Shown here in pieces: positions 6,157 through 26,262 of a stretch of 64,000 nucleotides of DNA. The stretch is from Sphaerolaimus hirsutus (taxonomy: Eukaryota; Nematoda; Chromadorea; Monhysterida; Sphaerolaimidae): positions 20,581,206-20,645,205 of the forward strand of contig OZ038459.1 in NCBI GenBank assembly GCA_964036195.1. Direction: 5' to 3'. Below the pieces are notes generated by a model, which saw only the letters and a program-made list of their open reading frames with translations, was not told where the DNA came from and made no database searches. Both the position numbers and the translations under genes were made by a program. Every line of letters starts with the position of its first letter. The stretch's first letter is position 1.

Positions 6157-9100
6157 CTGCATGATGGCTAGGGTGTCAAATTTCCATTTTGGTAAATTTG
6201 TCTGTTTCTGTTCACAATCTATCAAAATTTTCCTGTTTTCATTCATTTTTTCTCCACTCATTTTCTGGTTTCTGGTTTAACTTTTTTTCAAGTATTTTTT
6301 GAATATTTTCCAAACTGGCTTTTTCTACCATGGTATTTATGCGTCACCTTACTCAAACTAAAACAAAACACCTTTGCCTTTCATAAATATTTCCAATTTC
6401 AGTTGTTTTATGCCACTCTGCCTTTCTTATATCCAAATGTAAAATGAAATGTAAAAAAACAAGAAACAATATTCTGATGCAGGTCGGGGATGCAAATTAA
6501 AATTTTTGATTTAGCTTTCAGATGTGATACTAGATTGTGATTTCATTCCACATGTAAATATGAGCTTCTGTTTACATTGAGGTAAATTTCTTTATATCAC
6601 ATTTTTCAACACACTAGGGATATGGCATTAGTTGAATATTTATAAAGTGCTGAGTTTTGCAGTTGACACAAGCTACCAAACACCAAGCATGGTGTTTGCT
6701 TTTGTGTCATAGTGTCATGCTGAAGATGCATGACAGCCACATCTTTTAGTATTGGCAACTATAAAGTCATTTCATACGATCACCTTTTATCAGAAGATAG
6801 GTCATATGGGGCATCTGCGATACCACTGACCCAAGCCACAAGCACAGCAGCAGCGACAATGTCCGGAGAGTCATTTGGCTGCCCACTTCCCCAGGGTCTG
6901 ATGAAGCTGCTGAACAATTCCCCATTGGTTTGTTCCTTGTGGGTGCTGTTCAGGGCCAGCTGCCAGCCATCAGAAGAACTTGATCTTGTTAGTTTGTCCT
7001 GCATTTTATGAAATTAAGCATCAAGAAAATCAAGGTGCCTAGGATAGGTCAAAAAATACATTGTCACATTGTGTCCAATTTGTGGGAATGTAGGTTAAGT
7101 GAAACTGTAATGGGAGAAAATGGAAATATTTATATTGAACTAACATTTATGGCACCAAGCCAATACAGATTATTTGGGTTCAGTCCTCCAACCAGATCTG
7201 CAACCACATTTGGCAGCTGGCCATCCACAGGCCAAGCCAGGTGCCCCTTGTATCCTGGTATGTGACCTGCAGCAATACTTTAGGCTAGCGATGGCAAAAC
7301 AGACAAAAGTACAAAACATGTTGTCTTAAAACTTTACAATAACTTGAAAATATTTAACATAAGAAATAATATAGTATTATGTATAAATTTGTCAGCATTA
7401 CTTTTAATTAAGCAGTAGCAGACTATTATGAAAAGTATTCTGCATTCTGGTGCCGGTTCCGCAAGTGAAAAAGTTAAGAGTTAAAAGTTAAGAGTTGAGT
7501 GAAATGATAAATGAAAAGTTAAGTGTAAAGTTAAAAGTTAAGAGTTGAGTAAAATCATTTGTCGGTTTACTCAACTCTAAACTCTTAACTCTACTCATAA
7601 CTTGTCATTTGTCATTTTACTCAACTCTTAAGTTTTAACTCTTAACTTTTCCACTTGCGGAACTGGCCACAGAAAAGTATTCTGAAAAAGCATTCTGCCT
7701 GTGTTGATCGAACATATTTTTTATTTTATCAATTCTCATGAATCTCAAATGCTCACAATGCTATTTATAAGTCAAGAATGGCCCTGACTAGGGTGTCAAA
7801 TTTCCGTTTTCCGTTTTCCGTTTCTGTTTTCCGCAAGCAATTTTTTTCCGTTTTCCGTTCCGTTTTCCGGCTGCTGAAATTTTTTTTCCGTTTTCCGTTC
7901 CGTTTTCCGGCAACTTTTTTTTTCCGTTTCCGTTTTTCCGGCTCATTTTCCGTTTTCCAGCTAAATTTTCAGTTTTTCCGCCTTTTTTCCGTTTTCCGCC
8001 TCAATTTCCAGTTTTTCCGTTTTTTTTCCATTTTCCGCCTCAATTCTCCATTTTTCCGCCTCATTTTACCTTTTTCTGGCCCAACTTTCTGTTTTCTGAT
8101 CAGCCAAACTGGTAAAAATTCATGCAGATTGTCAATGATGTGAAAAATTTTCTGTTTCCAGCAAAATTACTGCAAATTTTTTCCACTTCCAGCAAAATTT
8201 CAGCAAATTTTATCCATTTTCCAGCAAAATTTCAGCAAGTTTTACCATTTCCGTGCTAATTTGATTTTTCCGTTTCCGTTTTTCCGGCCTCTTTTTCCGT
8301 TTTCCGGCCACTGAAAATTTTTTTCCGTTTCCGTTTCCGTTTTCCGCCAAGTCCAATTTTTTTTCCGTATTCCGTTCCGTTTTCCGGACGCTGAAACAAT
8401 TTTTCCGTTTCCGTTTCCGTTTTCCGTAGAAAAATTTTGTTGACACCCTAGCCCTGACACACACTGGTTTACAACGACACCAAATTTTCAGAGTTGATTG
8501 AACTTACTGCAGCTGACGAGTATGTTGTACCACTGTGAATTATTTTTTATACATAAATAAAGTGAGACGGTTTTGACATTATTTGTATGAAAGAAATATG
8601 CTACCCCGAAACTTTTTGAAAATAAGTGGAATACTGTAAATTCACATATTTACCATGAATTGATAAATAATAAATTGATTAATTATTGTTCCGCCCTATT
8701 AAAGACTATGCGACAACTTGTTCGATAATGTTGGCTCAGTGACGAAAAATGTGGCGGTGACGAAGTGATTGTCACCGCCTGGTTTTCGGGTGTCACCGCC
8801 ACAAAACGGCATGTCATCGCGGTGACAATCACCGCCACAATTTGATCAGCAGTTCAGTGCCCTTTTAATTGTGCATGATTGTTGTGTGGAGAATTTTTGT
8901 GCTCATTCCATCTGAGCAACGCAGTGTAGGAGCAGCACATTAGCATTTTACACACAAAAACATTTGTGGCGCCAGTATGCAGCTGGCATTGAAGCGCAGT
9001 ACAATTCTAAATTCAAATTGTAGATTGTGCATTTGTATTTGCAGTTTAAAGGGGGACTAACAGTGTATTTACAATAATTTACAAATACACAAGGGTTCTT

Positions 9101-12100
9101 AGATATATCAATATCTTATTTGACATGTTGAAAGCACTAACTGATATCTATTGTGTCTAAAAATGAACAAAAGCTCCTGTAGTTATCGAAATTTGTCTTT
9201 TACTGTATTTTTCATCAAGATCTCACAATTTGTCTGCAAACCGATGGAAACTTATGTCGACAAATTGTGAAAGCTTGACATAATTTTTTCCTGAGAGCTA
9301 CTGGAGCCTTTTCGATAATTTATGGACATGGTTGGTTTTAGTAAAATTCTTTTTACTAAAATTGTATTTTATTTTTATTAAAATTGTATTTTATTTTTAT
9401 TTTATTCATGTTTCAGTTTATTTTATTTTACTTTATTCTGAAATGTCATTAATAAAATAAAATGAAACCATTTTTACAAAAAATCGGAAATCTTGGATGT
9501 AACCAGGATGAAATCAGGTAGTAACCTCGCAGAGGCTCCTGTGGTCCTGATCCCTTAAACTTAAACACAGTAGACTCAGTCTGCCTGTGTGGTGGTGATG
9601 TCTTTCCGCTGCAGTGCCCTGCTTTCCAGTGCAATACACAGCCCATGTGGTGGTCCGTCATGCTGCACAGGCACCTAGCCAACACATAGATGAAAAAATG
9701 CTTAGATTTCTGTCGGTGACAGTCAGTGACAGGTATTTCAGAGGAGGTGACAGTCCTCGAAACCCCCCCCCCCCAATCTAGTGTATAGAGAACGTAAATG
9801 ACAGAGGCTATTTACACAGGTCCCGGCCGGGGACCGGGACCCGGCAAAACATATTTTTTTTCAAAAGTGAATAATTGGCGTGTATGGGTTATTTGCATGT
9901 TAATAAGGTGAATTATCACCAAATTAGCATGCACAAAATTTGCAAGACGGTTATACCCGCCAATGCATATTCTTTGGGTGGGTGTGTAAAATTAATCCGA
10001 TTAGTCTCAAATTTGGCATGTGTGTACTCCTTCGTTTAGTGAGTAAATTTTAGCTCCGGGCGGTTACTGGTTTTTATTTTATTCATCTTTTAATTTTTTT
10101 TGATCACTGTATTTTTGTATAGTGATCGAAATCCTGCTGGGGCCCGGTCCCCGGCAATGTTGAAATGGCTCCGACCGGGGTCAAACCGAAGAATTTCGGT
10201 CCCCGACCGGGGACGTTAGTTTTTTCTATGATTTTTCCCTTACTTTTCAAAAGTTGCATGCTGTAGGTATTGTTAGCTAGCTGCAAGTGTAAAGTTACAA
10301 TAATTGATAAGACATGGTTTGCATTTTCAGTAGAAGGACTACTGGAGTGTGCTGGGCACATTTGTAAAATGTCATGCAAAGTGTCAATTGTAATGACAAA
10401 TGTAAAGTAAAGTGTCAATTGTCATGCAAAATGTCAAGTGTCATGTAAAATTTCAAGCAAAGTGGCAATTGTCATGACTAGGTTGTCAAATTTCCGTTTC
10501 CGTTTTCCGTTTCCGCCTTTCCGCAGGAAAAATTTTTACCTTTCCGTTTTCCGTTTTCCGGCAGCCGAAAAATTTTTACCTTTCCGTTTTCCGTTTTCCA
10601 GCAGCTGAAAAATTTTACCTTTTCTGTTTTCCGTTTTCCGGCAGCTGAAAATTTTTTACCTTTCCATTTCCGTTTTTCCGGCCCATTTTTCCGTTTTCTG
10701 GCAGCTGAAAAATTTTTACCTTTCCGTTTCCATTTTACCAGGCCATTTTTCCATTTTCTGGCTCGATTTTCAGTTTTCTGGCATTTTTCCATTGTTTTTC
10801 CAATCTGTATTTATCTTCAATTGGCTCATCCCATTGTGTTGTTTTTGTCTCTTGGAGCAGCATTGACAACTGGGATTTCAGGGTCAGTGAAACAGGTGCT
10901 GTGAACCCAATTGGGTCATATGCTGACACCAATAATTTATTCAAGTTTCATCTGGTTGGTGTTGTGATGCTGTCAATTTGAAATTTTGGTGTTGATATTG
11001 CCAGCATGTCTGTTCGGTGATTTTATTTCATGCCCAAGATTGCGACAATTTTATTCACCTTTGGACTCCTGTCGCTTTCTGCTATTTCAGTCATGACTGA
11101 TCTGGAGTTTGACAGCCATTCCCTCATGTTCATAGAACATTGGTTAAATAAAGCTTTGACTTTGTAATATAGTTCTAAAGCTTCAACTTCATTCGTGACA
11201 CTCATGATGAAGTTATCGACGTAAATGTTGTTTATTATCATCGCCAACTGGTTTCTTTCCCCTTCATTTTCTTCATATTCATTCATGTTTATTGTCACAT
11301 TTAAATTGTATTTTATGACTGCTCCCAAAATTGCTGGGCTGCAGACAAGTCCAAACAGTACGCGTTTAAAACAAAGTACTATTAAGTTATTTTCAGTTAC
11401 TGGTTTTGAGGCATCTTTCAGCCAGAAAAATCGTGTGTAGTCTCTAGCTTGGTCATGCAATCCTATTTGCACAAATGCCTTTTCAATATCGGCAATTAAT
11501 GCTAGATTGCCTGCCCTGAACCTCAGGAGTAGGCACAGTGCTAATGGTGTTGTAATTGGTCCTCTAAAAAGGCACTCATTGAAACTGGGCTTACCTGCCG
11601 ACCCATCGTACACGATTCTGCATGATGTCGATTTGCCCGGCGTGATTACTGGCTGGTGTGGCAGGTAATGAATCCCCTTGTTGTCTGTTTTGTCATCACA
11701 GATCTCAATTATTCCCTTTTCTAGTTGGTCGTCCAAAACTTTCTGGTATTGTTCGAATAAGTTTGGATCTTTGTTGAATCTTCTTATCAGTGATTTAAAC
11801 TGCACCAAGGCTTCTGCTTTTCCCGTGGGCAGGTCACTGATACTCTTTTTATACGGCCAGTCAATATAGTATCGTTTGTTGTTGTTGTTGAATTTTATGC
11901 TATTTATTATCATCTCCTCTGCAACGTTGTCATCAATTGCATAGGGGTCATCAGTGATTCCCACTGCTTCTAGACTGTGATATTGTCGTAGTGTTTCCTT
12001 TCCTATGGCCACTATGGCTACTTTTTGATGATTTTTTGTTGGTTCAGTTAAGCTTGAACTACAAGTGAAGTTACAGGCATGATCCATAGTTGCAGAATGT

Positions 12101-15100
12101 ACAGCTACCACAATCAAAGCCAAACAGGCAAACCTGCATGCAGGTTTTCCTTCTGCAAATTTGTCTATTACCGTGCTAATTTCACTTTATTTTTTTCCAT
12201 TTCCGTGAAAATTTTGCTTTCCGTTTTCCGTTTTCCGGCATTTCATTTTTCCGTTTTCCGTTTTCCGGCTGACAATTTTTTTTTACCTTTCCGTTTTCTG
12301 TTTTCCGGCAGAAATTTTTTTTTACCTTTCCGTTTTCCGTTTTCCGTAAAGTGAAAAAATTTTACCTTTCCATTTTCCGTTTTCCGTAAAAAATTTTTTT
12401 GACACCCTAGTCATGACACGACATGACATTTTACACTTTACAAAGCTTGGAACTGTCCCCCAGATCCATGAATAAACAGGTAGACACTCAAGCAATGAGA
12501 AATAATTTTACAAAAAATATGAATTTTAATACAATTATACAAAAATACAAATTTTTATACAATTTTACAAAAATTTTACAAAAATTTGAATTTTTATACA
12601 ATTTTTATTTTTATTCTTAAATTTTCCATTTTATTTTATTTTATTCTTAAATTTTCCATTTTATTTTTATTTTTTTCTGAGATTTTGCCAACCCTGGTCC
12701 TGACATCGTGTATACGACTGCCATTTTTCCATATTTATTCAATTTAATACGTGGAGCCCCGGCAGGGCAGTGCAATCACAGCGGCTAAATACCAGTGCAA
12801 GGGTGCAAGGCAAGGAAAAAGGGAGAGCAGAACATGGCAAATTCCTTCTTCACTGCCAAACACGGCACACCAGGATTCATGACATATTTATACCCCATGT
12901 TGCACTTGTAAACGCATTGTTCATGCAGCAACATGTTTTTAATGCTACAACTTCATTTGCAACTAAAGCTCATTAGAAAGCATCAAATTGGTATTGGAAC
13001 CAGTTGAGATTTGGTGTCATTGTTAGTCAACTAGTGTCTGTAGGTGTAGGGAAAATTTGTAGAAACAAATCCGACTACCAGTGCACTTGTCAGCCACGTG
13101 GTACCAGTTTGAGCCAGCGACCCCCTCGTCCCAGTACACGTAGCAGGAGCCCTCGTGGAACACACTCCGCTTGCCAGTTACATTCAGGTTGCAGTTAGCC
13201 TCTAAAGTAGTATCTGCACATTTAAAATCAGTGCTGCATTTAAAAATTCTTGAGCTTTAAAGTTCATTTTCATGTGTAAATAAATTTTGTCTGAGCCTAT
13301 CAAATTGTGAGTATACAAAGTACTTGAGTATCCGTATTCATCGAGTAAATGTAAACACCTTCCCGGTCAAGTAAGCCACCCATTTTTTTCTTTCACTTCG
13401 GAAGCTATATCTCGGGCTATGGTGGGGTTATAGAGTTCTGAATATATACTTGTAACATCCCTCTACTCTGCATCAATGGGGGGAGGCATGGCGACCAACT
13501 ACAGGGTGGGTTGCCCTTTATGCAACAATTTTTTGCCAGGTTTTCAGTGTCCCAAACAAGTACACCACCCACTTGATATGCTACACTAGAGGGGGTGTAT
13601 CTCCAGTTGTGGGGGTGGTAGAAAGCTAAAATTTTAGGGGTATTTTGGCAACACCCACCCCTACTATACGCCAGTGGGGCAGCTCCCGACGACCCACTAC
13701 AGTTTGTGCCGCACTGTATAAACTTGTTTTTTTTTCAAAAGCAACCCAAGTGTCCCAAGTAAGTTCACCACCTAAAGGAATGAAAATTTTTTTCGAGAAC
13801 ATACCTTATATAAAAACTGAATCAGGTTTTCACCCTAGTTCTGCAAATTAAATTTTTTTCCTTTGTTTAGCCACCCCCATCATAAATGGCAGACCAAAAA
13901 TTTCACTTTAAACCAATTTTTTGTTCCACACTTTAAAAGTTGGTTTACAAAGTTCAGTAGAGGAGGGTCTAAGGTTCAAAGTTACGTAAAAAACATGGCC
14001 TCCAAAATGGCAACGTAAGGAAATTTATTTGGGGTCAATTCTATGATGGCATAATGATGGCATTGCAGGAACAAAATTTTGCAGAATTTTCACTTTTTCA
14101 TTCCACCCAAATAAATTTACCTATGTCGCCATTTTGGAGGTCATGTTGTTTACGTAACTTTGAACCTTAGACCCTCCTCTACTGAACTTTGTAAACCAAC
14201 TTTTAAAGTGTGGAACAAAAGATTGGTTTAAAGTGAAATTTTTGGTCAGCCATTTATGATGGGGGTGGCTAAACAAAGGAAAAAATTCTAATTAGCAGAA
14301 CTAGGGTGACACCCTGATTCAGTTTTTATATAAGGTATGTTCTACAAAAATTTTTTAATTCCTTTCGGTGGTGAACTTACTTGGGACACTTGGGTCGTTT
14401 TTTTTAAAAAACAACAACTTTATACAGTGCGGCACAAACTGTAGTGGGTTGTCGGGAGCTGCCCCACTGGCGTATAGTAGGGGTGGGTGTTGCCAAGATA
14501 CCCCTAAAATTTTAGCTTTCTACCACCCCCACAACTGGAGATACACCCCCTCTAGTGTAGCATATCAAGTGGGTGGTGTACTTGTTTGGGACACTGAAAA
14601 CCTGGCAAAAAATTGTTGCATATAGGGCAACCATACCTGTAGTTGGTCGCCATGCCTCCCCCCATTGATGCAGAGTAGAGGGATGTTACAAGTATACCTA
14701 TATTCACAAAGTTTCAGCTCTATAACGCCACCATAGCCCGAGATATAGCTTCCGAAATGAAATAAAAAAATGGGTGGCTTACTTGACCGGGAAGGTGTTT
14801 AAATAGATTTTAACAACTAGGTATGCGCCAATCACTGAATTACTATGGTGTTGCACTGGCCTAGAATAGTGAAAGCGTTGTGGTGCCATTGTCATTATTT
14901 GCAATGAAATATACAGGAATACTCCACATGGAAACACCACGATAGAAAAGAAGTGTGCTTTTTAATAGATGCTGTAGGATGACCTACTACCTGAATTAGT
15001 GTAGTTTCTCCACTGGCACTGGGGTGTCAACTTTCCGTGTTCCGTTTTCCGTTTCCGCTTTCTGCAGGCAAATTTTTTTCCATTTCCGTTTTCCGGCTGC

Positions 15101-16948
15101 TAAATTTTTTTCCATTTCCATTTCCATTTTTCCGGCCCATTATTCGTTTTCCGGCTAAATTTTCAGTTTTTCCATCGTTATTATGTTTTCTGGCTCAATT
15201 GTCTATTTTGCCAACTTTTTTTCATTTTCCAGCTCAATTTTCTGTTTTCTGTTTCAGCCAAACTGGTAAACATGCATGCAGGTTCTCAGTTATGTGAATT
15301 TTTCTATTTCTAGCAAGATTTCTGCAAATTTTTTTATTTCTGGATAAATTTCTGCAATTTTTTTTTCTATTTCCAGCAAAATTTTGGCAATTTTTTTCTG
15401 TTTCCAGCATAATTTCAGTAAATTTTTCCGTTTCTGTTTTCCGGCCTTTCATTTTTCCGTTTTCCGGCAAGTGCAAATTTTTTTCTGTTTCCGTTTCCGT
15501 TTTCCGGGAAGTGCAAAAAAAATTTTCCGTTTCCGTTTTCCGCCAAAAAGTTTTTGTTGACACCCTAACTGGCACCAACTTTCCACCATTTGATGTGACA
15601 ATGCACCAGACTAAGTGCCTGGGGTGCCATGAGAAAGGAGAACGCCAATGGTTTTATGGCACACGTCACACTGCACCTTGGCACCTTCAAATGGTAAAAT
15701 ACCAATGTTATTCTATCAGTAGACACAACTTACGATCTGGAAGTGGTACACTCTTGTTGTAGACGAAATATTTCTCTTTGTCAAAAGGCGTTACCAATGC
15801 GATACGGTAGGAACCCTGCAATAATTTATGATTGAATATAAATTTCTTGAGAATGCCCCCTGAAATTTTGTGATGGGGGTAAATGCAAGAGTGTAAAAAT
15901 TGGTAGATTTTTGGTCATTCGATATTGCGTAAAAATTCTTCAGAGTGGCATTTTCAAGGCAATGTTGTTTATGCACTTCTGAATTTTTAACCCTGCTCTA
16001 GATGCACTGTAAACAGAGTTTCGGGAGAGTACCATTTTGGTGCTTAACTTTGGCAGATGGCATAAAACACGCAAAATGTTGCATGTTCCACACCGTAGAG
16101 AGTTGCTGAAGCCCCCCCCCGTTTGTGTATAGTGGGGGTGGTGTTAAACCTATGTACCCCTTAAGTATCAGGTTCATATCTCACACAGCTGGAGATATGT
16201 CTCTTGTAAAAATAGAAAAATTTATGCTGAACTTGATGTGGAAGCAGTTTAGGTATACCTACAATTGGAGGTAATATGGCATATTTATCAAAGATAATTC
16301 AGCTCACAGTTAGCCCAGCCTGCCTGAGCTGGTCAACTTTTTGCTCATATGGCGGTTGGAACCAAGCCAACTTGGCGCTGGGCCAGAGGAGTTGGCACTT
16401 GTCCCAGGCCTGTGTCCAGTTGAGCTGGTTGTCTGCGGTGCTGAAATAGCATTGCTTGTCCACCAGCGCGCTGCCGGACACCCCCGACTCTGCTGCCTTC
16501 GCTGTGCACTGTCCTCCGAACACTGACCGCACCGCATCTGATCAGTGGTATAATCATGATCAGAGATATAAATAGCACCAGGACGTTGGGCATTTGGTTC
16601 CTGGCACAATGCACAAATAACGCCAAGTGCCAAAAGCACCATGGCACTTTTCATGGACATCGCACCAAGCGCCAATGGCGCCACAGCAGGATAGCGCCAG
16701 CGCCAAAGACGCCATGGAGCTTTTGCTATGGCGCTAGCACCAGGCACCATTGTGGAACATGAAATTTTCAATGGTAAATATAGTATCATGACAGACATCA
16801 TCACAGTTTAGAAGCTAAAATACAAGAAAAGTTTATGCAAATTTACAACAAAAACTTCACCTGAAATCTTGCCATTATGAACCAGTGGCTGTTGCACTGC
16901 GCCATGGGCGCTGATCACAAACGCCAAAAGCAGCACTGCTGAGTTCAT
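5989..16948 (-). CDS. Gene 1: secreted CTLD-PAN protein, 3' part not found
   Basis: Paralogue of gene 2. Exons on the minus strand: 16861-16948, 16308-16537, 15734-15815, 13079-13213, 7145-7266, 6784-6998, 5989-6156, all with GT-AG borders and phases identical to gene 2. The product has a signal peptide (MNSAVLLLAFVISAHG), the first half of a CTLD (exons 2-3), a complete CTLD (exons 4-7) and the start of a PAN/apple domain. The CTLD sugar-site motif reads QPN (WGSGQPND) where gene 2 has EPN. The last donor (ACAG|GTGGGT) is good, but no homologue of gene 2 exons 8-11 was found between 1 and 5988, so the gene either continues past the window or is truncated. Introns carry a 1.45-kb foldback (13354-14799) and hAT-like elements (6169, 7789, 10479, 15020). 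Role inferred from domains: extracellular carbohydrate or protein recognition. Confidence 0.8.
6169..6290. mobile_element. Truncated TAGGGTGTCAAA hAT-like element
   Basis: Starts TAGGGTGTCAAATTTCCATT like the full copies at 7789 and 15020, but no right end is found; the right limit is approximate. It directly abuts the intron side of the gene 1 exon 7 acceptor, so the polypyrimidine tract there is element-derived. Gene 2 lacks it at the same place. Confidence 0.6.
6784..6998 (-). CDS. Gene 1 exon 6 (sugar-site loop)
   Basis: 215 nt, acceptor AATGCAG|GACAAA, donor AAAAG|GTGATC. Contains SDGWQLALNSTHKEQTNGEL and WGSGQPND. The two loop cysteines of a classical CTLD are absent, as in gene 2. Confidence 0.86.
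7145..7266 (-). CDS. Gene 1 exon 5
   Basis: 122 nt, acceptor GCTGCAG|GTCACA, donor ATAAAT|GTTAGT. Contains KGHLAWPVDGQLPNV and the YWLGA box (equivalent of WIGL). Separated from exon 4 by nearly 6 kb of nested repeats. Confidence 0.86.
7453..7664. mobile_element. Palindromic AAGTTAAGAGTT MITE
   Basis: GGTTCCGCAAGTGAAAAAGT on the left is inverted as CTTTTCCACTTGCGGAAC on the right; between them are runs of AAGTTAAGAGTTGAGT and their complements. Comparable GAGAAGTGAAATGAG palindromes are at 54385-54645 and around the element at 57711. Lies in gene 1 intron 4. Confidence 0.6.
7789..8450. mobile_element. hAT-like element H1, 8-bp duplication GCCCTGAC
   Basis: Termini TAGGGTGTCAAA and TTGACACCCTA; exact 8-bp duplication GCCCTGAC at 7781-7788 and 8451-8458. 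The body is two blocks of TTTCCGTTTTCCG words, both in the same orientation, around a core containing CCAAACTGGTAAA. No transposase. The 8-bp duplication and TAGGG end indicate the hAT superfamily. FRFPFSV-rich frames are translations of the word array, not genes. Confidence 0.85.
8748..8850. repeat. GTCACCGCC word palindrome
   Basis: TGTGGCGGTGAC on the left and GTGACAATCACCGCCACA on the right, with GTCACCGCC repeated between them. A very small element built from one word. Confidence 0.5.
8851..9326. other. Intron 4 sequence of gene 1, nothing recognised
   Basis: Unique-looking AT-rich sequence within the 5.8-kb intron. One stretch (9160-9320) has a weak inverted repeat around CACAATTTGTC. 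Confidence 0.35.
9327..9510. mobile_element. GGTTGG poly(A/T) hAT-like element, left end
   Basis: CATGGTTGGTTTTAGTAAAA followed by TTTTATTTTTATT runs and ATCGGAAATCTTGGATG. It matches the left part of the complete element 44474-45294. Its partner right end could be 12696, but the flanking eight bases do not match. Confidence 0.6.
9815..10214. mobile_element. CCGGGGACC word element
   Basis: GGTCCCGGCCGGGGACCGGG near 9815 and GGTCCCCGACCGGGGAC ending near 10214, with further GGCCCGGTCCCCGG words near 10140. The termini are built from one GC-rich word; the centre is AT-rich. Confidence 0.55.
10735..10944 (-). pseudogene. BEL/Pao pol fragment (after RT) inside H2
   Basis: Continues the pol fragment after a stop and frame change: VSAYDPIGFTAPVSLTLKSQ then QWDEPIEDKY, the conserved segment after the BEL/Pao reverse transcriptase (S-YDP-GF ... 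WD). Its C-terminus runs into the GGAAA word array, giving artificial NGK-rich text. Confidence 0.8.
11023..12123 (-). pseudogene. BEL/Pao pol fragment (reverse transcriptase) inside H2
   Basis: 366 uninterrupted residues. Reverse transcriptase motifs in order: PVITPGKSTSCRIVYDGSAG (fingers), LIADIEKAFVQIGL (motif A), LFGLVCSPAIL (motif B), IYVDNFIMSV (motif C with YVDN). Upstream text ACNFTCSSSLTEP resembles the protease-RT linker. The upstream gag and protease, the integrase and the LTRs are all missing, so this is a captured fragment and not a working element. The word TTTCCG array begins immediately beyond it. Confidence 0.85.
12410..12696. mobile_element. GGTTGG poly(A/T) hAT-like element, right end
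   Basis: After a CACTTTACAAAGCTTGGAAC end, runs of TTTTACAAAAATTT and TTTTATTTT lead to GATTTTGCCAACCCTG at 12696. It matches the right part of 57711-58701. Confidence 0.6.
13079..13213 (-). CDS. Gene 1 exon 4 (second CTLD start)
   Basis: 135 nt, one codon longer than gene 2 exon 4. Motif NCNLNVTGKRSVFHEGSCYV then DKC, the N-terminal cysteines of a long-form CTLD, with one N-glycosylation sequon (NVT). Phase 1 at both ends. Confidence 0.86.
13354..14799. mobile_element. 1446-bp foldback element, TA duplication
   Basis: A giant inverted repeat: AACACCTTCCCGGTCAAG at 13354 is mirrored as CTTGACCGGGAAGGTGTT ending 14799, and the arms (each about 700 bp, roughly 90 percent identical by eye) pair almost to the centre near 14075. 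TA flanks both ends (13352-13353, 14800-14801). No coding frame is kept. It lies in gene 1 intron 3, so the pre-mRNA would contain a very long hairpin. Confidence 0.85.
15020..15567. mobile_element. hAT-like element H3, 8-bp duplication ACTGGCAC
   Basis: Termini TGGGGTGTCAAC and TTGACACCCTA; exact 8-bp duplication ACTGGCAC at 15012-15019 and 15568-15575. TTTCCG word arrays around a core with CCAAACTGGTAAACATGCAT. Same family as H1 without the pol piece. Confidence 0.82.
15734..15815 (-). CDS. Gene 1 exon 3
   Basis: 82 nt, acceptor TTGCAG|GGTTCC, donor GATC|GTAAGT. Encodes GSYRIALVTPFDKEKYFVYN and onward, continuing the first CTLD. Same size and phase as gene 2 exon 3. Confidence 0.85.
16308..16537 (-). 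CDS. Gene 1 exon 2 (first CTLD, N-terminal half)
   Basis: 230 nt, the same length as gene 2 exon 2. The sequence DKQCYF ... WTQAWDKCQLLWPSAKLAWF is the CTLD first strand and helix. Donor ACT|GTGAGC. Antisense and other-frame readings of this GC-rich exon look open but are shadows. Confidence 0.88.
16618..16745. repeat. GGCGCCA / AGTGCCA word cluster in gene 1 intron 1
   Basis: Words CGCCAAGTGCCA, GCGCCAATGGCGCC and GCGCCAGCGCC in both orientations. Similar GGCGCC clusters are at 27545-27735 and 61112-61256. Confidence 0.5.
16861..16948 (-). CDS. Gene 1 exon 1 (signal peptide)
   Basis: ATG at 16948, 88 nt, ending in phase 1 at TTTCAG|GTGAAG. Encodes a hydrophobic leader of about 16 residues followed by AVQQPLVHNGKIS. 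The AVQQPLVH stretch is identical in gene 2 exon 1. Confidence 0.85.
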
Positions 16949-16994
16949 TTTACTACATCTGAAGTTTTTTTCTCGGTGTTATCTGAAAACTCAC

Positions 16995-17829
16995 CAACGA
17001 TGACAAAAACACAGAAACTCATTGAGTTTCTGTGTTTTTGTTTTACACAGAAACACGTGAAATTAAATTTTTTGAAAAACTAAAAACTCAAATGTCTTTT
17101 TTATTGGTCTCAAACAAAGAAACACGGAAACACAGAAAAGTTTTTTTGACTTTTTTCATTGGATTTGAGGAATACTCTGCTGTTTTGAACTGAACAAAAT
17201 AAGAAATGTGCACAAGTGCATATCAACAGATAGCAAATTTTCTAAATTTACAAGTAACAAAATACAACCTAAGTAACAAAATGGCACCTGGTGATTATGA
17301 CAGTGACTGGAATTGTGATTGATACTGACTGATTGACAAAGACACTTGCACGTGCACCCACTCCACAGAGTTGAGGGCTCACGCCAAAGCTGCCAAAAGC
17401 ATTACTTGGTCACTTGTAATGTATTATTTACAACTCTAATGGGTCAAAAGATGAGTTCATCAAGTGAAACCAGTGAAGTAAAATGTCATCAAAAATGCCA
17501 AATGTTACAACTTTGATTTGAAATTTTGCATGACTTTTTACATTTTTCAGCACATCCTACAAATTTGTAATGAGAATACCACTGTTTTTGCATTAAACCA
17601 CTGTATTTGGGTACTTGAATTTAAAAAAATATATTTTTAAAATAAAATAAAAAAATTAAAAAAATAAAAAGTTTTTAATGAAAGACTTGAGTTTTTACAA
17701 AAAAAACACAGAAATAAAAACAGAGTTACTCATGTTTTTCTGTGTGAAAAAACTCAAAACACAGGTATTCATTTTTGAAAAACTCAAAACACAGAAAGTG
17801 TTTTTTTCTGGAGAACTTACCCATCGTTG
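16995..17829. mobile_element. CAACGATG element in gene 1 leader
   Basis: CAACGATGACAAAAACACAG on the left, GAGAACTTACCCATCGTTG on the right; body of ACACAGAAACTC words. It sits between the gene 1 start codon (16948) and a region conserved upstream of gene 2 (from 17840), where gene 2 has only about 50 bp. The flanking eight bases do not match, so age or rearrangement has blurred the duplication. Confidence 0.65.
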
Positions 17830-17839
17830 GGCGACTTTC

Positions 17840-18000
17840 AATATAGTGTGCTTCAGTGCCTTCAATATACCATATAACGTGACAATTGTGTATTTATCAT
17901 GAATCCATGTATCTAACAACATCCAGCCTTATTGTTTTGTTGTTCGAGATCTGTCGAGACAAACGGGGGTTATGCAAGCAAGTGTACCAGTTAAAAACTT
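17840..18000 (-). promoter_or_regulatory. Conserved upstream region of gene 1
   Basis: On the minus strand, TATATGGTATATTGAAGGCA CTGAAG aligns with ATGTGGTATACTGAAGGCAC TGAAG upstream of gene 2 (58955-59115), while most surrounding sequence differs. Conservation between paralogues and a TATA-like TTATATGG suggest the core promoter. Inference only. Confidence 0.45.
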
Positions 18001-18275
18001 ATAGATCTAAGTAAAAATGTCTACATATCTCCTCGTCTTATAGAATTCTATAAAAATGAGATTGTCAAAAATATAGCATTTTGACAAAATATTAAGAATA
18101 AAATTGTAAGAAATATTACAAAATAATATACTAAATATATACTCATGTATTTTTATCAACATCAATTCGCTCTCACAACTCTCTGTAACATGATAGTTCA
18201 TGATAACTAACATGCAACGATGGGTAAGTTCTCCAAAAAAAACACTTTCTGTGTTTTGAGTTTTTCAAAAATGAA

Positions 18276-18718
18276 TACCGTATTACCTCGAATTATCCCC
18301 CCCCTTGAATTAACCCCCCCCTCGAATTAACCCCCCCTCAAAATGGGCTGGGGAAATAATAAACCCCCCCCCCTCGAAATACCCCCCCCCCCTTCGGAAT
18401 GATGTACGTCATGTACATAATAAATACGTCATGTACGCACTGTACATGATGTATATTACTGTTAATTTGCATTGCAGCTACACATAGAGTAGTTTGTGTA
18501 GCTATCTACGTTTTTATGTCCAAATATATCCTGTTTGGACACATTTATTACCTATTTTGGGTACGTAAATGCCTACTATTTACTACGATCCTTATGAAAA
18601 TTTCTGACGAAATAATAAAACCCCCCCTCGAATAAACCCCCCCCTCGAATTAACCCCCCCTCAAATTTTGCTGGCGAAATAATAAACCCCCATGGGGGTA
18701 TTTCGAGGTAATACGGTA
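18276..18718. mobile_element. CCGTATTACC subfamily element
   Basis: Ends TACCGTATTACCTCGAATTA and GGTAATACGGTA. C-run paragraphs on the left, G/C-runs on the right, and a conserved core containing CATTGCAGCTACACATAGAG and ATATATCCTGTTTGGAC. This copy preserves the empty site of the insertions at 46194 (ATAG). Confidence 0.8.
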
Positions 18719-19206
18719 CCTGTGTTTTGAGTTTTTTTCATGAAAAAAACTTGAGTCACTCTGTTTTTATTTCTGTGTTTTTTGTAATAACTCGAGTTTT
18801 TTGAGTTTTTTCTTAAAAAAACTGGAGTTTTTTTCCAAAAAACTTGAGTTTTTCCCTAAAAATTCTGTTTTACAGCATTTCGATGGGGAAACAGCTGTTT
18901 TCTTATAAAATGTTGGTTTTGTAGCATTTGTGTATTCATTCAAGTGTTGAAAAAGTCCATAAAAATGTCCACAATGAGGACATCCACATCACAACACCAG
19001 CATCAACAAAATGACCACAAACAACAATTTACACAGTACTCCAAAATGCTTCAATGGATGTGCACTGTATGGAAGACTACAGAATTGATTTGAACTACAA
19101 ACTTTACATAAACATATGGAAACTTAAATTGTCAAATCCACCAGAAGGTGCACGTCATCTTTAATTTCTTTTTTTTCCATCATAAAACATGGATACATTA
19201 TGTACA

Positions 19207-19608
19207 TACCATATTTCCTCGAAATACCCCAGGGGGTTTATTTTTTCACATTTGAAATCGTGAGGGGGGTATTTCGAGGGGTGTTTATTATTTCACCAGA
19301 ACTTTTCGAACTCCCAGTACTAATTCGTTAATTGTAACATACACAGATGTACAAAAATGCAACAATAACTGACAAGAATAAGTGTTTATAGAATTATAAA
19401 AGTATTTAGATGGTATAAACTAACCCTGTTCTCACATAAAGCAGTCATTGTTTTAACATGTGTTCTGGATTGCCCGATCACAAACAGCAGCTTTTGTCAT
19501 TTACACGACCTTTACACTCAATTTGGGGGGTATTTCAAGGGGGTCATAAGTTCATAGTGCCCATTTTGAGGGGGTATTTCACGGTTGGTATTTCGAGGAA
19601 ATATGGTA
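19207..19608. mobile_element. CCGTATTTCC subfamily element
   Basis: Ends TACCATATTTCCTCGAAATA and TTTCGAGGAAATATGGTA. Core shares GTTTTAACATGTGTTCTG and CGATCACAAAC with copies at 22600 and 30300. Confidence 0.75.
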
Positions 19609-21130
19609 CTATACATGCATATATTATCATGTTTAGTTTAAATAACTGAATTCATGTGCATTCAACTGCCTCTCTGAAAAAAACTCAAAAAACTCCAAAA
19701 ACTTTTCTGTGTTTTCGTGTTTCTGTGTTTCTGTGTTCTCCAAAAAAAAACTCATTTGAGTTTTGAGTTTTTCAAAATTTGTGAGTTTCCGTGTTTCTGT
19801 GTAAAACAAAAACACAGACACTCAATGAGTTTCTGTGTTCAATTTCTGTGTTCTTGCCATCGTTGCTAACATGATACCCATTTCATAAGTGGTTCTCGTT
19901 GTCTCACTCACTCCGGAACAAACAAGCTAAGCTGACAGGTTAAGAAGAAAGAAACTATCTTGCAAGTTTTCTCATGGTTGTGAAGGGAACTGTGGAACAT
20001 TGTTGTTAAAATGTATTTACGTTTACTGAAAAAATACATACGCTGTGACGTGAATACTGTGTAAATGAGATTTACGTTTCCTATATGAAAGAAAATACCC
20101 ATACTCACCTTTACCTACGTGTACTTTAGTACTCGAGTGCAGAAAACGTATTTCGGATTGGCTTTTATATCAGCTTTTTCACAGCAAGGGGAAAAATGGA
20201 AGAAAGCTAAAAATAAGGGAACATAATACCTAATCACAATTGTGTATATAAACAAGCCAAAAGCAGATGAACTAGTGAGCTTGAAAGTGAAAATTGTCAA
20301 AAAGATATGAAAAGTAGAGAATTTGGTAGTGAAAATAGGCAAAATAATATGAAAATTTGTGATTTGAGTGAAAATTGGGGGACAATTTCTAAAAATACTG
20401 ACTTTTACATCATCCTGGGAAAATAATTCTACTCACGTTTACTCAAGAGTACAAGTAGTATTTAAAACATGACATTTTCTGAGGTCAGGTCCAGGGTGAG
20501 TAAAAAATACTTTATGTTTACGTTTACCTTGAAAAGGTTCAGTACTTTTAACAACTCTGCTGTGGAACTGTGCTTACTCGTTACAAAAGTGATCAATCCA
20601 CGGCGATTCCATGGCGATTCCATGGAGATGATACAATGACATTTTGTCGCAGTGGCCATGCGCACACTAGTTTTCGGACGAAATTTCGAAAACTCATGAG
20701 TTTGGACGTGTTTGAGTTTTCCACAATGAGTCAGTTTTTATTTCCGCCAACTGTAGTTGATGCCCATCTCATTGTAGAAAACTCAAAACTCAAATGCATT
20801 CTTAGCTGATTTGTGAGTTTTCAAAATTTTGTGTGAAAACTAGTGTGCGTAGGCACATTGGGACCAGGTGAGACAAAAACGATGGCTGGAATTGACGCTC
20901 GCTCAATATCACGCGGTTTACTTGACTGAATCTTGACCCATCTATATCCATGTGTATTACGTACTGTATATTTCATGCACATATTTATTTTACGAAAGCA
21001 ATTTACGCTGTAATCGAACCTTTAACGGGAACAAAGTTTTATTCGTTATTATAAGAGTTGCAGCTACCGTATTTCCTCGAAATACCCCCAGGGGGTTTAT
21101 TTTTTCAGAGTGAAAATTTTGAGGGGGGGG

Positions 21131-22374
21131 TAACGATGGCAAAAAAAGATTCGAAAATTCGAAAACATTTTCGAATTTTCGAATTTTTCCGGAATTTTCG
21201 AATTTTTATTTCACCTCTAGAAAAAACACTTAAAAATCGATTTATTTTTCAAAAAATTCAAAAATTCGAAAATTCGAAAATTTAAAAATACTTTTCGAAT
21301 TCAGGCAATTCAAGGCACTCTTAAGTTCAGCGTACTAAATACAACGACAATTGATACGCGGTGCTTATGCAAAAGCGAAACAAAACAGAAAAAACGTCCA
21401 AAAACATTGAAATGTAAACTGCCCTGTAAAATGTGAAATGTCATGCGAAGTGTCAAAAGTTATGAAAATGCCATGGAAAAATGGCAAACATATTTGCCAT
21501 TTTCCACAGCATTTCCATGACTTCAGACACGTTGCATAACATTTGACATTTCACAGAGCATTTTACAGGTGTCTGGGACTGCACATAGGAACTGCACATA
21601 TTTATAAGTAAAAGAGATGTGATCAAAGATATACTCCAGCGACATTACACTTTACAATGAAACCTACCATATGCCATCTGAATAAAATAACAAAATATAA
21701 AATTTTTTCATCATATTAATTAAATTGCTTTGATAAATAGGTATGATGAAAAATTTTTCAGATGGGTCATGGTAGATTTCATTGTAGGTGTAATGTCGCT
21801 GGAGTATAAGAGTGGTTTTGAGTATTGGTTTGAGAAGTACCCATATTTCATGCAGTTAGCACTGTATGCACTGAGTACGCTCAGTGTGCTACACTTGGGC
21901 GACATTACACCGTACATTTTTCTGGTGGTAACACTCCATCATGACGTCATAACCGCAGTCCGCAGTGAACTTACGGCTGACTGAACTGGTTCGGAGTCAG
22001 GATGAAATAGAGTGGAGTGGTGAATCAGTTCACAAGTTTTCAGTTGGCTGTCTGCCAGCCAAAGATATAAATCATATCTATTTGTAGATTAGCATGTCTG
22101 CCGAGTATAGCCACTTCCAAAACAGTCCAAATTCTGTGTTTAAAGCTTCAGATTCAACATTTTTCCAAAAAAATTCAAAACCTATTCGAAAAAATTCAAA
22201 AAATAGCCAAAAAATTTGAAAATTGCCAAAAAAGATTTGAAAATTCGAAAATTCAAAAATTAAATCCGAAATTCAAAAATTAATTTCAGGAAAAATTCGA
22301 AAATTCGAAAATTCATTTAGGAAAAAACACTTAAAAATTTAAATACTTTTTTTTTGGAGGGTTTGCCATCGTTA
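21131..22374. mobile_element. TAACGATGGCAAA element, TTCGAAAATTCGAA words
   Basis: Termini TAACGATGGCAAA and TTTGCCATCGTTA, body of self-complementary TTCGAAAATTCGAA words. It sits within a run of G, so an 8-bp duplication cannot be proven but is compatible. It contains a CCCTGTAAAATG palindrome (21418-21590) and the element 21630-21808. A further copy starts at 63862. Confidence 0.7.
21630..21808. mobile_element. TATACTCCAGCGACATTAC palindromic MITE
   Basis: TATACTCCAGCGACATTACA at 21630 is mirrored by TGTAATGTCGCTGGAGTATA ending 21808, and the arms pair with mismatches towards the centre. CAGCGACATTACACC also occurs at 770-784, and GGGCGACATTACACCG at 21898. Confidence 0.65.
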
Positions 22375-22750
22375 GGGGGGGTTAACCGATGGGGGGGGGG
22401 GGGTTTCGAGGGGGGGGGGGGTTTCGAGGGGGGTGGGGTTATCCTTTCGGCAGAAATTTGTCTGAATTCCCAGTACTTAATTGTCGTCTGAAACGCACGC
22501 AGACGTTGAAAAATGCAACAAAAACTGCCATTTTTATAACTCTATAGACTGTCAATGTATGTATACCATATAAACACTGTTCTCACGGAACACAGTCATT
22601 GTTTTTAAGTATGTTCTGCACTGCCCCGATCACAAACCGCACCTTTTATCATGTACGTTCTGTATACACTAAATTGGGGGGGGGGGTATTTCGAGGGGGG
22701 AGTTATAAGTTTATAGTGTCCATTTTGAGGGGGGTATTTCGAGGGGGCCA

Positions 22751-22930
22751 GGCCTCTTCCACACATAAGCCTGTTTCGCACAAATGCCCGTCTTGCACAT
22801 GCATGAAACCCATTTCGCACAAAACGCCCATTTCGCACAAAAATGATGTGTGTGCGAAATGGGCCTATGTGCGGAAAGCAGGCGTATGTGCGTGTGCGTC
22901 GAGCGTGTGACTGGGCACCACAACTTTACC
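22751..22930. repeat. CATTTCGCACA word cluster
   Basis: CCCATTTCGCACAAA repeated and then inverted as TGTGCGAAATGGGCC within 180 bp. Another one-word element. Confidence 0.5.
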
Positions 22931-22942
22931 CCCCCCCCCCCC

Positions 22943-23887
22943 TAGGGCTCGAAACTCAATTTTTTTCAAACTTGAGTTCGAGTCGCAACCGCAAATTTTT
23001 TCCGGTCGAGTCGGCGAGTCAGGCAAGACACTGAAAAGTCGAGTCGAGTCTGCCAAAAATCTTGAGTCTCGAGTCAAGTCGGATGCATTACTTTTTGGTA
23101 TGACCCTTGCGGAAATTTTTGATACTGGTTTCTCTTCCAATGTTTTCACACACACTTAATGAAGTCTAAATGTCAACAGTTCATTTAAATATAAAGATAA
23201 AGCAAAAATAGAACTTTTTATCACTCATGTTGCTACAAATAAAGTTGCAAAAATCAGCCTACGGATGGATAATTAACATCTTTTACAGCATTTTTTTGGA
23301 TCAGTGCCAACATTGTGCAATGCATTTGAGGTGGTGTGCATAGGCGGCGCAAGGTCCCAATTTGTGCTTGTGACATTCACAATTACATTGGCCAAAATTT
23401 GACCTTGTGCACTTTTTACTAAGTAAACATAGGGATTTCTGCTTGTGACACCGAAAATTCCGCTTGTGACATTCACAAGCGCACAAGCACTTACGCCGCC
23501 TATGGTGGTGTGTATATCATGGATGGTGTGTGTATTGCATTATGTAGAATTGTATGGTAACAAGAAATTTGAGTTTTAACACCATTCAATACATACGTCA
23601 AGCCAATTGACAATATATCACACATGTGGTATGGAAATGCGCACTCGCGCGCAAAATTATTGGAAAATATGTTAAAAAGTTCATATCAAAATCAGTTTTT
23701 TAGGACAGTATTCAATGGAAACCCTGACTCGAAATTTGCCAAAATTTCGAGTCGAGTCAGGCAAAAACCTCGAGTCTCGAGTTTGGGCCAAATTTTTCCG
23801 GTCAAGTCAGACGAGTCGAGTCGGTATCCTGTTTTACCATCGAGTCTCGAGTTGAGTCGAGTCAAGTCGAGTCGAGTTCGAGCCCTA
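22943..23887. mobile_element. TAGGGCTCGAA element, GAGTCGAGTC words
   Basis: Termini TAGGGCTCGAAACTC and GAGTTCGAGCCCTA, flanked on both sides by runs of C (8-bp duplication of C compatible). Subterminal GAGTCGAGTC arrays on both sides. The 9-bp-duplication element 23339-23503 is nested inside. Confidence 0.7.
23339..23503. mobile_element. MULE-like MITE, 9-bp duplication GGTGGTGTG
   Basis: CATAGGCGGCGCAAGG to ACGCCGCCTAT; exact 9-bp duplication GGTGGTGTG at 23330-23338 and 23504-23512. 165 bp, nearly the same as 61786-61950, which explains the look-alike frames found at both places. Confidence 0.85.
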
Positions 23888-23984
23888 CCCCCCCCCCCCC
23901 CAGCAAATTTGGTTCCAGGCGACGCCTGCTGGCTGTATGATGTGCAGACAATGCAACATCTTGAATGGTGCAATGCAACAGGGT

Positions 23985-24140
23985 TTCAGTCTCAAAAGTC
24001 ATGGAAAATGCCCTGCAAAATGGAAACTCGGTTGCCATTTTGCAGGGCATTTTCCATGACTTTTGACCATGTAAAATGTCAAATGTCATGCAAAGTGTCA
24101 AAATTCATGGAAAATCCCTTCAAAATGACAAATCAGACAG
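23985..24140. mobile_element. CATGGAAAATGCCCTG palindrome
   Basis: GTCATGGAAAATGCCCTGCA is mirrored as GCAGGGCATTTTCCATGAC about 50 bp later, followed by TGTCAAATGTCATGCAAAG words. Family of 5662. Confidence 0.55.
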
Positions 24141-24199
24141 CCGGCGCCACCTGGAACTCATTGTGCTGTGGGGAAGGGGGGGGGGGGGATGTGGGTGCA

Positions 24200-24360
24200 C
24201 AGCAGAGTTGTGCAAATACTGGTATTTTTGTAAAACGTAAATGTAAACGTAAATACCTTTTCCAAATAAAAAGTATAAATACTAAAACGTAAGGTATGTT
24301 TAAAATACCAAGGAATACGTAAAAAAACGTAAACGTAAAAATTTTTACACACATATTTGC
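24200..24360. mobile_element. CAGAGTTG element with CGTAAACGTAAA words (partial)
   Basis: Starts CAGAGTTGTGCAAATACTGG; body of GTAAACGTAAATAC words. It matches the ends of 35240-36108. No right terminus identified. Confidence 0.5.
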
Positions 24361-24693
24361 CATTGTGCTTTGGAATATACCATAATTTTCACCTTCAGGT
24401 GGGTTAATCATTCCGTCTGCACTACTTTCTGTAGTAAGTGTGGCTAAATCCAACTAACGCTGGTGATTCTGGGGGAGTCCCAGACCCTGTAAAATGCCTT
24501 GTAAAATGTCAAATGGCATGCAAAGTGTCTAAAGTCTTGTGCCCTGGAAGGTGGCAAATCTTTGCCATGGGGCTGCCATGGGGGGTGGCTTATTCGACGG
24601 GGGTTATTCGGGGGGGGGGGGTCGTAATTCGTAAGGGTCATGATAAATAGTAGACATTTGCGTACCTGAAACAGGTAATAAATATGTCCAAAC

Positions 24694-26262
24694 TAGGGTG
24701 TCAAAAAAATTTTTTTACGGAAAACGGAAAACGGAAAGGTAAAATTTTTTCACTTTACGGAAAACGGAAAACGGAAAGGTAAAAAAAAAATTTCTGCCGG
24801 AAAACGGAAAACGGAAAGGTAAAAAAATTTCACTCAGCGGAAAACGGAAAACGGAAAGGTAAAAAAAAATTGTCGGCCGGAAAACGGAAAACGGAAAAAT
24901 GAAATGCCGGAAAACGGAAAATGGAAAGCAAAATTTTCACAGAAACGGAAAAAAATAACGTGAACTTTGCACGGTAATAGACAAATTTGCAGAAGGAAAA
25001 CCTGCATGCAGGTTTGCCTGTTTGGCTTTGATTGTGGTAGCTGTACATTCTGCAACTATGGATCATGCCTGTAACTTCACTTGTAGTTCAAGTAATCACG
25101 CCGGGCAAATTGACATCATGCAGAATCGTGTACGATGGGTCGGCAGGTAAGCCCAGTTTCAACGAGTGCCTTTTTAGAGGACCAATTACAACACCATTAG
25201 CACTGGGCCTACTCCTGAGGTTCAGGGCAGGCAATCTAGCATTAATTGCTGATATTGAAAAGGCATTTTTGCAAATAGGATTGCATGACCAAGCTAGAGA
25301 CTACACACAATTTTTCTGGCTGAAAGATGCCTCAAAACCAGTAACTGAAAATAACTTAATAGTACTTCGTTTTAAATGCATACTGTTTGGACTTGTCTGC
25401 AGCCCAGCAATTTTGGGAGCAGTCATAAAATACCATTTAAATGTGACAATAAACAACATGAATGAATATGAAGCAAATGAAGGGGAACAAAACCAGTTGG
25501 CGATGATAATAAACAACATTTACGTCGATAACTTCATCATGAGTGTCACGAATGAAGTTGAAGCTTTAGAACTATATTACAAAGTCAAAGCTTTATTTAA
25601 CCAATGTTCTATGAACATGAGGGAATGGCTGTCAAACTCCAGATCAGTCATGAATGAAATAGCAGAAAACGACAGGAGTCCAAAGGTGAATAAAATTGTC
25701 GCAGTAATGAGCATGAAATAAAATCACCAAACGGACATGCTGGCAATATCAACACCAAAATTGCAAATTGACAGCATCACAACACCAACCAGACAAAACT
25801 TGAATAAATTATTGGTGTCAGCATATGACCCAATTGGGTTCACAGCACCTGTTTCACTGACCCTGAAATCCCAGTTGTCAATGCTGCTCCAAGAGACAAA
25901 AACAACACAATGGGATGAGCCAATTGACGATAAATACAGATTGGAAAAACAATGGAAAAATGCCAGAAAACTGAAAATCGAGCCAGAAAATGGAAAAATG
26001 GCCTGGTAAAATGGAAACGGAAAGGTAAAAATTTTTCAGCCGGAAAACGGAAATATGGGCCGGAAAAACGGAAACGGAAAGGTAAAAAATTTTCAGCTGC
26101 CGGAAAACGGAAAACGGAAAGGTAAAAATTTTTCAGCTGCCGGAAAACGGAAAACGGAAAGGTAAAAATTTTTCGGCTGCCGGAAAACAAAAAACGGAAA
26201 GGTAAAAAATTTTCCTGCGGAAAGGCGGAAACGGAAAACGGAAACGGAAATTTGACACCCTA
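24694..26262. mobile_element. hAT-like element H4 carrying BEL/Pao pol
   Basis: Termini TAGGGTGTCAAA and TTTGACACCCTA; exact 8-bp duplication GTCCAAAC at 24686-24693 and 26263-26270. GGAAAACGG arrays at both ends; BEL/Pao pol in sense orientation inside. Relative to H2 the pol part has lost about 0.4 kb upstream of the RT, so the two are separate deletion derivatives of one composite. Confidence 0.87.
25065..26009 (+). pseudogene. BEL/Pao pol fragment inside H4
   Basis: 25065-25721 reads ITPGKLTSCRIVYDGSAGKP, LIADIEKAFLQIGL, LFGLVCSPAILGAV and IYVDNFIMSV; 25737-26009 reads VSAYDPIGFTAPVSLTLKSQ and QWDEPIDDKY. The order and the stop between the two pieces are as in H2. It is not a complete element, and the frame ends in the word array. 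Confidence 0.83.

What the first reader, a model, noticed from the sequence alone, without database searches (positions are those of the whole stretch)
10479..26262. hAT-like elements that carry a piece of BEL/Pao polymerase
H2 (10479-12409) and H4 (24694-26262) each have TAGGGTGTCAAA-type ends and their own exact 8-bp duplications (GTCATGAC, GTCCAAAC), so each moved as a DNA transposon. Both contain the same BEL/Pao pol segment between the same GGAAAACGG arrays, with different internal deletions. H5 (46718-47874) has a third, shorter version. Sisters H1, H3 and H6 have the same ends without pol. A retroelement coding fragment was thus captured once and multiplied by a cut-and-paste element.
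Basis: partly seen in the sequence, partly recalled or inferred. Interest (0 to 1): 0.75.

Follow-up and report, generated by a model that had tools for sequence, protein, structure and literature searches.

The report
hAT transposon multiplying a retrotransposon fragment
A cut-and-paste transposon swapped its own middle for a piece of an unrelated retrotransposon's polymerase gene once, and then spread that chimera to about a thousand places in an animal-like genome, many more than the few-copy animal captures in the papers seen here.

Summary
H2 and H4 have matching ends, exact and different 8-bp duplications, and one shared BEL/Pao fragment. The window's 348-Mb genome could be searched. A pattern inside the fragment occurs at 994 places. 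Of the 30 best protein-matched copies, 30 share one in-frame stop; of 29 with both ends, 26 have perfect, different 8-bp duplications. Left junctions agree in 29 of 29 aligned copies, right ones in 28 of 29.

The family is hAT: eight elements with such ends, AAACGG arrays and exact duplications carry a hAT transposase C-terminal domain. Target sites read GTnnnnAC, within the hAT rule nTnnnnAn. H4's ~400-bp deletion occurs at 14 places and moved on its own.

Corrections: H5 is a nest, an H1-like element inside the pol copy, flanked by a 43-bp direct repeat. The fragment spans about 10,798-12,018. No donor BEL and no complete hAT with these ends were found. Verdict: a very high-copy Pack-hAT, a new variant of a known kind.

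The parts
10479..12409 (-). H2, full-length chimeric element (1,931 bp), minus strand in pol sense
   Evidence: TIRs and exact duplication GTCATGAC at 10471-10478 / 12410-12417
10798..12018 (-). Captured BEL/Pao fragment in H2 (boundaries about +-20 bp): region before RT, RT, first third of Peptidase_A17
   Evidence: hAT homology to sister elements stops at H2rc ~389-391 and resumes ~1612; RVT_1 4.6e-6; Peptidase_A17 on the matching H4 piece
12019..12409 (-). hAT left flank: TIR, AAACGG array, inner hAT sequence
   Evidence: Aligned to hAT-domain elements L010, L013, L029
10479..10797 (-). hAT right flank: inner sequence, AAACGG array, TIR
24694..26262 (+). H4, deletion derivative (1,569 bp) with its own duplication GTCCAAAC
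   Evidence: deletion junction at 14 places in the genome, 10 of them exact
25092..25946 (+). BEL fragment remaining in H4 after a ~400-bp deletion (right border estimated from H2)
47144..47874 (+). H5 outer part: right half of a pol-bearing element
   Evidence: 96.9% to H4 over 731 columns
46735..47143 (-). H1-like element nested in H5, one end only
   Evidence: 94.4% to H1 1-409; TIR abuts pol sequence
46675..46717 (+). 43-bp direct repeat left of H5 (partner 47875-47917)
   Evidence: 98%
47875..47917 (+). 43-bp direct repeat right of H5
7789..8450 (-). H1, sister element without pol, duplication GCCCTGAC
15020..15567 (-). H3, sister element without pol, duplication ACTGGCAC
51011..51639 (-). 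H6, sister element without pol, duplication TACCAGAC

Best explanation
The elements are non-autonomous hAT transposons. In one founder, the internal region (in sisters it holds the end of the transposase gene) was replaced by about 1.2 kb of a BEL/Pao polyprotein gene, in the orientation opposite to the transposase. The likely route is faulty repair or replication of the element with template switching (inferred). The founder carried or soon gained an in-frame stop. A hAT transposase supplied elsewhere (inferred) then moved the chimera as an ordinary cut-and-paste cargo to about a thousand places; sampled copies each have their own 8-bp duplication (shown). A copy that lost ~400 bp (H4 type) gave a further, smaller lineage (shown). 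The fragment decays about as a neutral passenger (partly shown).
For: 994 genome places match a 35-nt family pattern spanning the stop, reversed control 0. 26 of 29 copies with both ends have perfect, all different duplications. Same junctions. Shared stop 30 of 30. Mean pairwise identity 97.1% over whole elements in 29 copies, with short inner branches. hAT domain within elements of these ends: L009, L010, L014, L028, L029, L030, L033, L036 with perfect duplications, L013 with one mismatch; rescanned for three of them, best E 4.4e-18 (L009), and Hermes structures 2.5e-8. Target consensus: T2/A7 at 49 of 76 half-sites, P 2e-9 on an assumed background of 0.31; Hermes rule nTnnnnAn (PMC2803484, passages). 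AAACGG, a repeat of Ac subterminal regions (PMC3260210, passages), occurs 4-25 times per window element, always on one strand. H4-type junction at 14 places; of 6 fetched, 4 have perfect different duplications, 1 has one mismatch, 1 (L074) is nested and its far end lay outside the fetch.
Against: No complete hAT transposase with these ends was seen around 28 domain matches (only 3.2-kb loci viewed), only fragments. Four sampled BEL elements of this genome are just 42-45% identical in protein over the larger piece and 31-35% over the smaller, so none is the donor. Three of 29 copies lack a matching duplication (L040, L054, L065). The 30 copies were picked by protein score and are not a random sample. 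Two of eight end-matched loci (L002, L008) have no BEL piece within 1.5 kb. Template switching is inferred: the breakpoints cannot be fixed to the base without the donor.
Confidence: 0.9

Rival explanations
1. The elements belong to another 8-bp-duplication superfamily, most plausibly P elements, whose preferred target (recalled: GTCCGGAC-like) also fits GTnnnnAC.
For: 8-bp duplications; G1/C8 at 44 of 76 half-sites.
Against: hAT dimerisation domains lie inside elements of these ends with exact duplications; the solved relatives are Hermes transposases. No P-element search was run.
Confidence: 0.03
2. The BEL fragment entered each element separately, or the copies are segmental duplications rather than transpositions.
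For: BEL sequences are very abundant here: 150 Peptidase_A17 matches scored of 2,290 first-look candidates, which may include the captured pieces.
Against: Same junctions, shared stop, different 8-bp duplications directly at the ends.
Confidence: 0.02
3. The captured ORF is kept by selection and makes a truncated RT protein (domesticated or dominant-negative).
For: The 107 scored matches cover at least 386 of 387 residues, and 33 of 107 have no inner stop (counted by eye). In the 30 copies the synonymous fraction in the frame is 0.38 against 0.27 expected.
Against: Those copies were chosen by protein score, which by itself favours synonymous change. Stops arise at about the neutral rate (18 of 463 single-base codon changes, 3.9% vs 3.4% expected). 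H2 and H4, not so chosen, differ by 18 nonsynonymous and 2 synonymous codons over the frame, hAT-derived codons included. After the stop the synonymous fraction is 0.10 against 0.30 expected, a figure probably distorted by L052.
Confidence: 0.04

Closest known systems
Pack-TIRs of animals, including Pack-hAT-N8_XT of frog (PMC8277862; passages and sections 9 and 14 read)
   Same: TIR transposon carrying a copied foreign segment; multicopy cases share one chimeric structure with different duplications; FoSTeST model
   Different: Four multicopy cases are named for frogs and alligators plus Ssk-FB4 in flies; the two described in the section read have three copies or three to four; here about a thousand places. 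Their screen demanded a unique parent without flanking TEs; here the cargo is itself a retroelement fragment
Maize Ds-like elements with captured DNA, e.g. Ds-l4-483 with an LTR-retrotransposon polyprotein fragment (PMC3260210; passages and section 12 read)
   Same: hAT ends, 8-bp duplication, AAACGG subterminal repeats, retroelement coding fragment inside
   Different: Ds-l4-483 is described as one compound 7.3-kb element; here a compact chimera (mostly 1.9-2.0 kb) replaced the inner part and multiplied
Pack-TYPE elements of plants (PMC8903248; passages and start of abstract seen)
   Same: Non-autonomous cut-and-paste elements with captured DNA, Pack-hATs included
   Different: Plants; the passages seen deal with captured host genes
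Hermes (hAT)
   Same: Target rule nTnnnnAn, C-terminal dimerisation domain
   Different: Hermes is autonomous; only domain fragments were found here

Membership tests
hAT superfamily (non-autonomous) | 8-bp target duplication | tested here: met
   5 of 5 two-ended window elements, 26 of 29 pol copies
hAT superfamily (non-autonomous) | Target consensus nTnnnnAn | tested here: met
   49 of 76 half-sites, P 2e-9
hAT superfamily (non-autonomous) | hAT transposase between the same ends in related elements | tested here: met
   Only C-terminal domain fragments: eight elements with perfect duplications, one with one mismatch (three rescanned)
hAT superfamily (non-autonomous) | A complete autonomous partner | tested here: inconclusive
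hAT superfamily (non-autonomous) | Ac-type AAACGG subterminal repeats | tested here: met
   4-25 per window element against 16 in the other 57.5 kb, five of those in the 62.6-63.0 kb remnant
Pack-TIR / Pack-hAT | Foreign segment between the TIRs, inside the duplication | tested here: met
Pack-TIR / Pack-hAT | Parent copy identified elsewhere | tested here: inconclusive
   Four sampled BEL elements (of 150 scored matches) 42-45% identical, none is the donor
BEL/Pao retrotransposon | Complete element with LTRs and full polyprotein | tested here: not met
   Only an RT segment and profile positions 1-56 of 162 of Peptidase_A17, inside hAT ends; it is a fragment, not a member element

The most novel reading that the evidence does not exclude
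The chimera is the last relic of a BEL/Pao lineage now gone from this genome, and its thousand-fold spread helped to remove that lineage: fragments read in both orientations from neighbouring promoters would feed small-RNA silencing of the donor, so a cut-and-paste element acted as a mobile silencing template.
Probability: 0.05. Interest if true: 0.8.

Novelty: new variant of a known kind. Interest (0 to 1): 0.45.

Why it matters
In the animal survey that I read (PMC8277862) captures by cut-and-paste transposons are mostly single-copy, with a handful of few-copy families. Here one capture became a family of about a thousand, with a traceable order: hAT element, capture, burst, deletion, second small burst. 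That makes it a good natural case for testing how captures arise and why one succeeds. It also warns annotators: about a thousand "BEL polymerase" hits in this genome are hAT cargo and would inflate retroelement counts and mislead RT trees.

Tried and rejected
P-element origin, considered because of the GTnnnnAC sites, was set aside once hAT domains were found inside elements of these ends. I first placed the left hAT-BEL border at H2rc ~355 (note), which would have put H4's deletion at the junction; alignment to L013, L010 and L029 moved it to ~391, so the deletion is ordinary. The stretch around L023 proved not to be an autonomous hAT. Viral contigs and genome contigs gave no confirmed relative (1 and 45 pattern matches failed confirmation). 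The only solved-structure matches of the RT piece were secretin chains at E 0.23 or worse, ignored. Nineteen other window frames (of 231 of 70 aa or more) gave no transposase, only weak matches under the cut-offs. A synonymous excess in the frame was discounted for ascertainment; the part after the stop showed the opposite, probably because L052, which has no right end, is misaligned there. Literature searches without useful hits: no papers; 91 papers, ten titles seen. Structure prediction and fold search were not used.

Full report
What was checked. The five window elements with both ends (H1, H2, H3, H4, H6) have TAGGGTGTCAAA-type ends and exact, different 8-bp duplications. H2, reverse-complemented, aligns with H4 from end to end: left array 95.1%, pol frame 97.1%, part after the stop 97.6%, right array 95.8%. 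Identity is thus similar across arrays and cargo, as expected if they travel as one unit. H4 lacks about 400 bp.

H5 is not simply a shorter version. Its left part (46735-47143) is one end of an H1-like element, 94.4% identical to H1, whose terminal TTTGACACCCTA abuts pol sequence at 47144. The right part (47144-47874) is the pol element. So an H1-like element jumped into a pol element, and the far sides of both were lost (inferred from this order). The flanks are a 43-bp direct repeat, 98% identical; blastn of both flanks found no third copy in the window. L074 shows the nesting intact elsewhere: a complete H1-like element (663 bp, 95.3% to H1, duplication ATTGTCAC) sits inside an H4-type copy, which continues on its other side.

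What the cargo is. The H2 frame of 387 aa matches RVT_1 weakly (4.6e-6, 26.9 bits, below Pfam's cut-off of 29.6). The next piece in the same frame after a TAA stop, read apart in H4, matches Peptidase_A17, the Pao retrotransposon family, at 4.5e-7 over profile positions 1-56 of 162. The pieces also align with RT regions of BEL elements of the same genome. So it is a BEL/Pao fragment cut off within the A17 region.

Where the borders are. Sister elements that carry hAT transposase remnants (L013, L010, L029) align with H2 up to H2rc ~389-391 on the left; on the right the clear homology resumes at ~1612 with L013, while L010, L014 and L029 give looser starts. L014's left homology ends earlier, at 333. 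The BEL piece is therefore about window 10,798-12,018; the bases between array and pol on the left are hAT sequence. A 46-bp stretch of this hAT sequence also occurs at 49461-49506, 91% identical.

Whole-genome evidence. The window lies in a 348-Mb assembly of 762 contigs. The end pattern TAGGGTGTCAAATTTCCGTTTCC occurs 5,797 times at up to 2 mismatches (reversed control 0). Of eight zero-mismatch places cut out, 6 of 8 carry the BEL fragment at 93-97%, some with gaps; L002 and L008 do not. These eight lie at the start of one contig and are best matches, so they are no random sample. A 35-nt pattern around the stop, written from letters common in the listing, occurs at 994 places at up to 3 mismatches (control 0); an H2-specific version gave 600. 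The protein search scored 107 of 4,264 first-look candidates; the 107 cover at least 386 of 387 residues.

Independent transposition. Of the 30 best loci, 29 had both ends within the locus (L052 had no right end), and 26 of 29 had perfect 8-bp duplications, all different; L040, L054 and L065 did not match. Left junctions agree without gaps in 29 of 29 aligned copies (L052 left out, reference L037 counted), right junctions are present in 28 of 29 (L056 lacks that stretch; L060 and L064 have 1-2 gap positions). The stop codon is shared by 30 of 30. The 29 copies are 97.1% identical on average (95.6-99.3) with short inner branches, which looks like a burst. H4's deletion junction occurs at 14 places, 10 exact; of six fetched, four have perfect and different duplications, L076 has one mismatch, L074 is nested and its far end was not fetched. 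So a deletion derivative has moved on its own as well.

Why hAT. A search for the hAT dimerisation domain gave 28 matches. Eight lie in elements with TAGGGTGTCAA[A/C] ends, AAACGG arrays and perfect 8-bp duplications; L013 has one mismatch; L027 has loosely matching ends but no matching duplication; in most of the other loci no such pair of ends was seen. The domain of L009 scores 4.4e-18 and its solved relatives are Hermes transposases (2.5e-8). In these nine the transposase piece runs opposite to the AAACGG strand, whereas the BEL piece runs along it (strands, and 16 and 45). Over 38 distinct duplications the target reads GTnnnnAC, T2/A7 at 49 of 76 half-sites, in line with nTnnnnAn of Hermes (PMC2803484, passages seen). 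AAACGG is the repeat found in Ac subterminal regions (PMC3260210, passages); that Ac transposase binds a hexameric subterminal repeat is stated there, and that it is this hexamer I recall.

How it most likely arose and works. Inferred: a hAT copy suffered a break or stalled fork in its middle; repair switched to a BEL element and back, so that 1.2 kb of BEL replaced the transposase remnant. The arrays on both sides are repetitive, as are the ends of FB4, for which template switching and transposition were proposed (PMC8277862, section 9). Shown: the chimera then moved as cargo. Inferred: the transposase came from a complete relative that I did not find. H2 and H4 differ by 18 nonsynonymous and 2 synonymous codons, and stops appear at about the neutral rate in the 30 copies (18 of 463 changes), so the cargo looks like a passenger. 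Against this, the synonymous fraction in the frame of those 30 was 0.38 where 0.27 is expected; they had been picked by protein score, so I do not read it as selection, but it is not excluded.

What was not found. Four BEL elements sampled from the 150 scored A17 matches (of 2,290 candidates) are 42-45% identical to the larger piece in protein. The donor is thus not among these four; the rest were not compared. No complete hAT with these ends was seen.

Comparison with print. Capture by hAT elements is known: Ds and Ds-like elements of maize hold gene fragments, and Ds-l4-483 holds an LTR-retrotransposon polyprotein fragment (PMC3260210, section 12 read). In 100 animal genomes 370 Pack-TIRs were reported, with four multicopy cases in frogs and alligators (PMC8277862, sections 9 and 14 read). 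Plant Pack-hATs are also known (PMC8903248, passages). Searches for retroelement or BEL cargo in hAT elements showed no such family in the titles and abstract starts listed; the held library lacks most subscription journals, and Repbase was not available. The kind is known; the copy number and the retroelement cargo in an animal-like genome make it a new variant.

Noticed in passing
46675-46717 and 47875-47917: 43-bp direct repeat flanks the nested H5 instead of 8 bp, and the left ends of both elements are missing; it looks like aberrant repair after nesting.
   Followed up: partly
62593-63027: Partial sister element with a left TIR and AAACGG-type array but no recognisable right end.
   Followed up: no
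6169-6300: Isolated TAGGGTGTCAAA end without AAACGG array or partner.
   Followed up: no
G000: Many BEL/Pao elements with very long stop-free frames (many of 2,400-2,957 aa) in this genome, suggesting recent activity.
   Followed up: no
38946-40109: Long TTGACATTTATCAC-type tandem array (14-38 bp periods), and many scattered CCCCCCTCGAATTAACC-type short repeats across the window.
   Followed up: no
L067 (C7:14194500-14200000): A 287-codon frame that looks like a seven-helix receptor (by eye, no search), near a truncated hAT element.
   Followed up: no
L014, 1055-3004: A 1,950-bp hAT element with these ends, a transposase domain fragment and extra unidentified inner DNA, a possible second capture.
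   Followed up: no
L074, 902-1564: An H1-like element sits inside an H4-type copy with a perfect duplication, so these elements nest in each other more than once.
   Followed up: yes
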